NCBI RefSeq assembly: GCF_013408535.1
Contig: NZ_JACBZA010000001.1
Coordinates: 3,556,850-3,620,849, forward strand
Length of the DNA stretch: 64,000 nucleotides
Reading direction: 5' to 3'
Source of the DNA: Actinopolymorpha cephalotaxi
GTDB lineage: Bacteria > Actinomycetota > Actinomycetes > Propionibacteriales > Actinopolymorphaceae
Below the pieces are notes generated by a model. It was given only the letters and a program-made list of their open reading frames with translations. It did no database searches and was not told the DNA's origin. Positions 30,489 through 64,000 of the stretch are shown here, in pieces (the first letter of the stretch is position 1; every line of letters starts with the position of its first letter). Both the position numbers and the translations under genes were made by a program.

Positions 30489-31293
30489 GGTCAGGTCAGG
30501 CTCCTCAGGGTCCGGGCACGAGTGTCCCAGCGTCGCGGCGACGTCAGGGTTCATGTTCCCCCGCCGACGGTTGAGTTGCGCGCACGACTGGCACGGCGGG
30601 CCGGAAAGGCACGCGCAGTTCCCCTGGTGACCACCCTGTGTCACCGGCAGATGTGTCACCGGCAGGTGTGACGCCGGCTCGTCCGTCCCGGAGGGACCCC
30701 GCGGTTGCCGAGAGACCCTGGCCACGGAGTCGAACCGCGACAGGACGATCTTGCCGGATCGCCCGCTCTTCCGTTGAGCTAGCCAGGGGAGAAGATCGAG
30801 TGGCTGTCCTCAACCAGGCGGGAGTTCCGTCACCGAGAAGGACGTCCCACCATGATCGACCCGGCATGATCGCGTTGTCCCGCAAATGATCGAAGTCCCT
30901 GTCACAGTTGTTCCGGCTGTTCCGGCTGTCGCGGCTGTCGCGGCGGCGGTGTTGTCGGCGAGCTGGTGAACGCCCTAACATCAGGCTGCGACCGCCGGTA
31001 GGCGACTCCACTGGGACGCATCTCTCTCCGCGCCACCTCTCTTCCGGCGCACCTCCTCTGCGGCCGGCCCTTCTGGTGCACTCTTCGGGCCCACCGCTTC
31101 TGGCGCACCCCTTCTGCGGCCACTTCGTTCTGCGGCCACTTCGCCGCGGCCAACTCGTTCTGCGGCCACTTCTCTGCCCCGTTCGTTCGGCGGCATCCCC
31201 TGCCGGCCCACCTCGTCCCGCGCATCTGTGGTCGCACGTGGCCCACTCCCGTCCTCCTTGTCCGCGCTTCCCTCCCCTACTGCGAGGTCTCCC
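30489..31293. other. 805-bp gap with minisatellite-like repeats
   Basis: No gene is supported here. It contains the possible longer 5' end of the helicase gene (to 30554), 15-bp tandem repeats of TGTGTCACCGGCAGA at 30637-30678, 9-bp GGCTGTTCC-type repeats near 30908-30945, and a degenerate array of 13-16-bp units at about 31025-31190 (exact copies of TTCTGCGGCCACTTC at 31112, 31128 and 31158). It must hold the divergent promoters of the helicase and phosphotransferase genes. Confidence 0.6.

Positions 31294-62684: not shown

Positions 62685-62694
<10 letters not shown>
61075..62694 (+). CDS. FAD-dependent oxidoreductase, phytoene desaturase/PYROXD2-like
   Basis: The 539-residue product has YDVAVVGGGHNALVAAAYLA and VIVLERLDHLGGAAVSE (dinucleotide fold with the GG doublet), a central FAD/substrate domain (WRVPVGGMGAVSGALATAAR) and a C-terminal PNLLICGSGARRGGAVSGIG. 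It is a second member of the family seen at 46841-48451, with little resemblance outside motifs. The stop TAG (62692-62694) is made of bases 8-10 of the tRNA-Lys gene, so the two genes overlap by 10 bp. The last 20 residues are probably an add-on. Confidence 0.85.
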
Positions 62695-62757
<63 letters not shown>

Positions 62758-62762
62758 CAGCG

Positions 62763-62801
62763 GGCGGTTGACCAGCAGAGATGCAGGTCAACCGCCTTTC
62801 T
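62763..62801 (+). terminator. Terminator after tRNA-Lys
   Basis: An 11-bp perfect stem (GGCGGTTGACC with its complement at 62786-62796) and a 12-base loop is followed by TTTCT. Confidence 0.75.
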
Positions 62802-63270
62802 CGTCCCACGGCACGGCAGCTGATCTGCCCCATGACCACCACCGCCGCCGTACCCGTGCCTGCGAGCCCATCGCGACCCGTGATGCACCAAGTAGCCCGG
62901 CCGTGTCGGATTGCTCGCGAAGATCGCGATACGTGTCCGGCAGGTCACGGACGCTGCCTGCCGACACAAGACCGGTTCGTCGGCGAAGCGCTCCCCCGCC
63001 CTCCCGGCCCCCAAGTCGCACCACGACTCCCCGACCTCGACCGTACCCGCCTCCAGGTCGACCCACATCCCAGACGATGGTCGCCCGTCCCCACCGATCT
63101 GCGGCCGTTGGTGGCGGCGTCAAAGACAATGAGAAGCCACGCACATTTGCAACCTACTGACGAGACCACGGTTCCACGCCAATACTGTTGTCACCGCCGA
63201 CCGCACCACGGCCCCTCCGCCTGAGCGGAACTAAGGCAGTGCCAAATTGGCGGGCCCTTTAGTAGTAGGG
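62802..63270. other. Gap after tRNA-Lys, no clear gene
   Basis: Several frames are open here on both strands but none has a recognised family or a good start. GC falls towards 63270. On the minus strand the words LPDTYRDLREQSDTAG and WVDLEAGTVEVGESW look protein-like but are in different frames, so this may be a decayed gene. Confidence 0.4.
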
Positions 63271-64000
63271 GTGGGTTCGTTGTCAACAAACCAAGACGAG
63301 AAAACTTCCAGGGAACGACTATGGAAATATGCACCTGGAATCCTCAGCGCGACCGTCGTCGTGACGGGGCTTGTCGTCTATGGCGTGCTCGCAACTGCCT
63401 ACGATCGCTTCTACTCAGAGCTAGGACTGACTCCCGCCGATGTCGGGTTACAGTATGGCAAGACTTTGGGTGGTGCCGCGGCGCTGGCGTTGCTTTTCAT
63501 TCTGATAGCGCCTTTTCTAGCCTTGGGTATAAGGTATCTATTGAATCAGATGCGTGCACTGCCACGGAGACGGTTAAATGTAGCCCTGATCATACTAGTT
63601 GTCGTAGCGGCCGTCGCATGGCTAATAGCAAGTTTGAACCTGGGATTCCTAACCGGAGGCGTATTGCTCGCCGTGGTAATCGCTTTCTATGCCGGAGTTA
63701 AGAGCAAGGACTGGAAGGAAGACGGCGCAGCCGTTGCGGCCGCGGCCGTTGCGGCCGGGATTACCTGGCTTTTCCTTTCTACTGGCGTGGGACTGTATGC
63801 CAACTACTATGCGAACAGCGTCAAGCGCGGCGATTGGATCAAACCGCCGGAGAGTGGCAGCCTCGTCTTCTTCTCAGTCCGAGCGATGCCAACAAACTTC
63901 GTACCGGCAACGCGGTCGCCGACCGATCTTGCCTTTGCCAGAGCTCACGAGAACCATCGACTGCTCTTTCTCGGCGTATCGAACGGACTCCTCATCATCT
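63271..64000 (+). CDS. Membrane protein of unknown function, 3' end outside window
   Basis: The open frame runs to the right edge (about 243 residues visible). It has about five membrane segments (ILSATVVVTGLVVYGVLATA; AALALLFILIAPFLALGI; VALIILVVVAAVAWLIA; GGVLLAVVIAFYAG; AAVAAGITWLFLSTGVGLYA), followed by a soluble segment. A stretch FYSELGLTPADVGLQYGKT precedes the second span. The start is uncertain: GTG 63271 or TTG 63280. GC is clearly lower than in the rest of the window, and TTA, CTA, ATA and AGA codons occur often. I do not recognise the family. It is probably horizontally acquired. Confidence 0.7.
   Translation, partial: MGSLSTNQDEKTSRERLWKYAPGILSATVVVTGLVVYGVLATAYDRFYSELGLTPADVGLQYGKTLGGAAALALLFILIAPFLALGIRYLLNQMRALPRRRLNVALIILVVVAAVAWLIASLNLGFLTGGVLLAVVIAFYAGVKSKDWKEDGAAVAAAAVAAGITWLFLSTGVGLYANYYANSVKRGDWIKPPESGSLVFFSVRAMPTNFVPATRSPTDLAFARAHENHRLLFLGVSNGLLII

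What the first reader, a model, noticed from the sequence alone, without database searches (positions are those of the whole stretch)
62758..64000. Edge of an acquired island beside tRNA-Lys(CTT)
After tRNA-Lys the sequence changes: a probable decayed stretch, then a multi-span membrane protein with low GC and rare TTA, CTA, ATA and AGA codons. tRNA 3' ends are common integration sites. The gene has no family I know and continues past the window; this is the likeliest place for an undescribed system.
Basis: partly seen in the sequence, partly recalled or inferred. Interest (0 to 1): 0.6.

Follow-up and report, generated by a model that had tools for sequence, protein, structure and literature searches.

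The report
Decayed mobile-element remnant beside tRNA-Lys(CTT)
Beside a tRNA gene of an actinomycete lies a 2-kb scrap of an old integrated mobile element (a broken integrase gene and two foreign orphan genes), an ordinary kind of leftover at a site where a sibling species still carries a whole element with a phage-defence cargo.

Summary
tRNA-Lys(CTT) is at 62685-62758, followed by a decayed stretch, then a membrane-protein gene (63280 to 64107, 107 bases past the window) with low GC and rare codons. Reading on in the genome, the foreign stretch is only about 2 kb (62.8-64.8 kb). From about 65.3 kb GC is near normal and gene order matches congeners: no large island.

The decayed stretch is a broken tyrosine-integrase gene (62888-63084, minus strand, pointing at the tRNA), far above shuffled controls. 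It resembles the integrase of a 16-kb element that a congener carries in the same tRNA. That element has integrase, RepSA and FtsK/TraB-like genes, a 38-bp repeat of the tRNA 3' end, and a UG22 reverse transcriptase with HEPN partner as cargo: an actinomycete integrative and conjugative element (AICE). Two other congeners have integrase scraps beside this tRNA; a third has a degenerate tRNA-end repeat.

Best reading: a decayed AICE with two leftover cargo genes. No second att copy survives here. Such remnants are already described. The membrane protein belongs to a small unnamed actinobacterial family; its convergent neighbour has no relative found. No new system is visible.

The parts
62685..62758 (+). 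tRNA-Lys(CTT), the integration site; its 3' 38 bases are repeated at the far end of the element in congener G004
   Evidence: ARAGORN; alignments of the site in congeners
62762..62797 (+). terminator hairpin after the tRNA, shared with G003 and with the sequence beyond the far end of the G004 element
   Evidence: fold -27.9 kcal/mol, z -5.2, followed by TTTCTCG; match to G003 and G004
62888..63084 (-). remnant of a tyrosine integrase gene (parts matching residues 222-248 and about 281-318 of the G004 integrase), frameshifted, pointing at the tRNA
   Evidence: 52-base match at 90%; frameshift-tolerant score 89 against shuffles 36.7 +/- 4.4, maximum 49; alignment
63280..64000 (+). orphan membrane-protein gene, 275 aa, about five spans; continues to position 64107 outside the window (L007:3280-4107). 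Next, outside the window, lies a convergent 155-aa single-span protein gene (L007:4126-4593, minus)
   Evidence: open frame and translation; foreign codon use; distant relatives in actinobacteria

Best explanation
[quoted passage not shown] Its tyrosine integrase gene, lying next to the tRNA and pointing at it as in the intact AICE of a sibling species, has decayed. Replication, transfer and excision genes and the far att copy are gone; two low-GC orphan cargo genes remain. The neighbouring mycothiol-S-transferase-like gene, intact in G003, is a pseudogene here that has lost its 3' part, probably by the same deletion. Shown: the integrase remnant, the foreign composition, the absence of both genes from five congeners, the AICE in the same tRNA in G004, integrase scraps at this tRNA in two more congeners. 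Inferred: that the orphan genes came in with the same element as the integrase, that this element was an AICE rather than another tyrosine-integrase element, and the order of deletions.
For: Integrase remnant. Site used in congeners: AICE with tRNA-end repeat in G004, integrase fragments in G001 and G002, degenerate tRNA-end repeat in G003, nearly empty site in G005. Foreign composition. Orphan genes absent from congeners. Backbone conserved beyond. Published parallel of partial integrase plus cargo at AICE sites: PMC9513070; AICEs in tRNA-Lys: PMC3218068.
Against: No second copy of the tRNA 3' end is detectable in this genome next to the remnant. The remnant covers only two pieces of the integrase. 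No replication or transfer gene remains, so the class of element rests on the integrase and on the congener. The terminator just after the tRNA is the one found beyond the G004 element, so the remnant is not simply the left end of a G004-type element. Relatives of the membrane protein are not in visible mobile elements.
Confidence: 0.8

Rival explanations
1. Two separate events: an old tRNA-integrating element left the integrase scrap, and the two low-GC orphan genes came by another route, for example recombination in a variable intergenic spot.
For: The spot between the tRNA and the ligase gene differs in every congener. The integrase scrap has near-host GC (0.64-0.69) while the orphan genes have 0.52-0.56.
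Against: AICE cargo is often of different GC from the element backbone; the G004 cargo is 0.54-0.56 in an element of about 0.67. The scrap and the genes adjoin.
Confidence: 0.15
2. The remnant comes from a prophage or another tyrosine-integrase island rather than an AICE.
For: Tyrosine integrases of many element types use tRNA 3' ends, and no RepSA or TraB gene remains here.
Against: The closest integrase known at this tRNA is in an element with RepSA and an FtsK-like protein. No phage relative of either orphan protein was found.
Confidence: 0.1
3. One reading: the edge of a large acquired island that continues past the window.
For: The composition change starts here and the tRNA is an integration site.
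Against: GC is 0.65 or more from 64.6 kb and near normal soon after, and genes from about 65.3 kb are in the same order in three congeners for 30 kb.
Confidence: 0.01
4. Native genes that drifted in composition, not acquired DNA.
For: A Kribbella relative of the membrane protein lies in an ordinary GC-rich chromosomal setting.
Against: Neither gene occurs in five congeners, codon use is foreign, and an integrase remnant adjoins.
Confidence: 0.01

Closest known systems
Decayed AICEs of Streptomyces (PMC9513070, 'AICEs are prone to decay')
   Same: A partial integrase and leftover cargo genes at a site that holds an intact AICE or nothing in relatives; backbone order conserved on both sides
   Different: There two direct repeats still flank the remnant; here the far repeat is not detectable. 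There the site is a glycosyltransferase gene, here a tRNA-Lys gene
AICE of congener G004 in the same tRNA-Lys(CTT)
   Same: Same integration site; integrase next to and pointing at the tRNA; recognisable similarity to the remnant
   Different: Complete (integrase, HTH excisionase-like gene, RepSA, FtsK-like gene, far tRNA-end repeat), other cargo (UG22 reverse transcriptase and HEPN partner), and inserted between the tRNA and the terminator that G000 still has directly after its tRNA
Frankia AICEs in tRNA-Lys (PMC3218068)
   Same: AICEs with tyrosine integrases in a tRNA-Lys gene, also as tandem arrays
   Different: Intact elements in another family of actinobacteria; sequences not compared here
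Unnamed membrane-protein family with Kribbella and Frankiaceae members (L115, L116, L114)
   Same: First span followed by FYxxLGxxPxxVGL, further spans, C-terminal part with an LG...YD-like stretch; 42-48% identity around the motif
   Different: 15-25% identity overall; the relatives are GC-rich, and no element is seen around the Kribbella copy

Membership tests
AICE (intact element) | intact site-specific integrase | tested here: not met
   only two frameshifted pieces remain
AICE (intact element) | RepSA or other replication initiator and FtsK/TraB-like transfer protein | tested here: not met
   none between the tRNA and the conserved backbone; present in G004
AICE (intact element) | direct repeat of the tRNA 3' end at the far end | tested here: not met
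   best local match no better than shuffles; no exact word of 14 or more other than in a tRNA-Leu gene within 77 kb
AICE remnant | trace of a tyrosine integrase next to a tRNA 3' end, in the usual orientation | tested here: met
AICE remnant | same site occupied by an AICE in relatives, with conserved flanks | tested here: met
   G004
AICE remnant | the lost element had AICE replication and transfer genes | not testable with these tools
   those genes are gone from this genome
Known anti-phage defence genes | match of the two orphan proteins to a PADLOC profile | tested here: not met
   no match up to E 1
Cytochrome bd oxidase subunit II (PF02322) | score above the Pfam gathering cut-off | tested here: not met
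   22 bits against a cut-off of 35.6; probably hydrophobic resemblance only

The most novel reading that the evidence does not exclude
The membrane protein, perhaps together with the convergent single-span protein, has been kept because it does something for the host or the element, such as exclusion of other elements or phage defence at the membrane, and its small actinobacterial family is an uncharacterised cargo function.
Probability: 0.06. Interest if true: 0.4.

Novelty: new member of a known kind. Interest (0 to 1): 0.18.

Why it matters
It explains a composition anomaly as a common kind of leftover and marks tRNA-Lys(CTT) in this genus as a repeated landing site for AICE-type elements. 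The more useful lead lies in a sibling species, whose intact element at this site carries a reverse-transcriptase defence system.

Tried and rejected
A second copy of the tRNA 3' end was sought over 77 kb downstream (exact words) and over the next 2.6 kb (local alignment with shuffles): none. A profile of AICE integrases run on six-frame chunks missed the remnant because of its frameshifts; a frameshift-tolerant alignment found it. Phage and plasmid collections and viral contigs gave no relative of either orphan protein. Pfam, NCBIfam, PHROGs and PADLOC gave nothing above cut-offs for them. Structure models were too weak to search with (mean pLDDT 45 and 55), so no fold search was run. Integrase traces in G003 and G005 were not significant (scores 35 and 29). 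Many weak matches to the membrane protein at class level are mostly chance hydrophobic similarity; only those with the FYxxLGxxPxxVGL motif were kept.

Full report
What was checked. The window lies at 3556850-3620849 of a single 6.86-Mb contig. The next 76 kb were fetched.

Extent. GC returns to 0.65-0.67 at about 64.6 kb and to host values soon after. Comparison with five congeners shows that the tRNA and the bases before it are shared by all. From about 64.8 kb (G003) or 65.3 kb (G005) the same genes follow: a flavin-dependent monooxygenase-like gene, an ATP-dependent DNA ligase and on for 30 kb. G004 joins the same order at the ligase gene. The part private to this genome is therefore about 2 kb. 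At 64.8-65.2 kb lies a broken copy of a mycothiol-S-transferase-like gene (PF04978) that is intact in G003.

The decayed stretch. Between the terminator and the membrane-protein gene, 52 bases match the integrase gene of congener G004 at 90%. A frameshift-tolerant alignment of that integrase with the minus strand scores 89, against 36.7 +/- 4.4 and a maximum of 49 for 60 dinucleotide shuffles, and a maximum of 57 at 60 other places of the window on both strands. Two collinear pieces cover residues 222-248 and about 281-318. The reading direction, towards the tRNA, is that of the G004 integrase.

The site in relatives. In G004 a 16-kb element sits in the same tRNA, with 38 bases of the tRNA 3' end repeated exactly at its far end. 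It encodes a tyrosine integrase, a helix-turn-helix excisionase-like protein, RepSA, an FtsK/SpoIIIE-type protein and a GntR regulator: the gene set of an AICE. Its low-GC cargo includes a UG22 reverse transcriptase (PADLOC E 6e-126) and a HEPN partner (E 1.6e-39). G001 and G002 have integrase fragments next to the tRNA (scores 212 and 184). G003 has a degenerate repeat of the tRNA 3' end 1.2 kb away, better than all 100 shuffles. G005 is nearly empty. A secreted-protein gene beyond the G004 element resembles one in the G001 island (44% over 149 aa), a sign of successive elements at one site.

The two orphan genes. The membrane protein (275 aa, about five spans) has relatives in a few actinobacteria, among them Kribbella and a Frankiaceae bacterium, recognised by FYxxLGxxPxxVGL after the first span. 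It is rare: 2 of 294 genomes of the order, own genome included, and 5 of 395 of the class with the motif profile, of which two are weak. The Kribbella copy sits among ordinary chromosomal genes of normal GC. The second protein (155 aa, one span) had no relative in 294 and 395 genomes, plasmids, phages or viral contigs. The two genes are convergent, so not one operon. Neither matches a known defence profile. No function can be assigned; leftover cargo is the most likely status.

Interpretation. Partial integrases with orphan cargo at AICE sites are described in Streptomyces (PMC9513070), and AICEs in tRNA-Lys in Frankia (PMC3218068). The locus fits that pattern, except that the far repeat is lost. 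The terminator directly after the tRNA here is the one found beyond the far end of the G004 element. So the remnant belongs to an older element, with the terminator perhaps its left end; newer elements would insert between the tRNA and older ones. That step is inference.

Verdict. Observation confirmed.

Noticed in passing
G004:C1 about 3372616-3388700 (L041, reversed): Intact AICE in the same tRNA-Lys(CTT) with low-GC cargo: UG22 reverse transcriptase, HEPN partner, and a 358-aa protein of no known family beside them.
   Followed up: partly
G001:C3 downstream of tRNA-Lys (L045 and L046, reversed; first 20 kb): Island with two partial integrase fragments (at 0.3-0.9 and 7.3-7.7 kb) fused in frame to a helix-turn-helix regulator-like part, and repeated secreted-protein genes ending in LxKVxWLH.
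   Followed up: partly
G005:C14:156754-157308 (L020): A fragment 70% identical to the AICE integrase lies next to another tRNA of Lys-like sequence, so related elements use a second tRNA in this genus.
   Followed up: no
window 30714-30788, minus strand: ARAGORN reports a tRNA-like structure with a four-base anticodon (ggca) and no identity; possibly a pseudo-tRNA or a chance match.
   Followed up: no
L007:4790-5230 (window scale 64790-65230, outside the window): Pseudogene of a mycothiol-S-transferase-like (DinB superfamily) gene that is intact in G003.
   Followed up: partly
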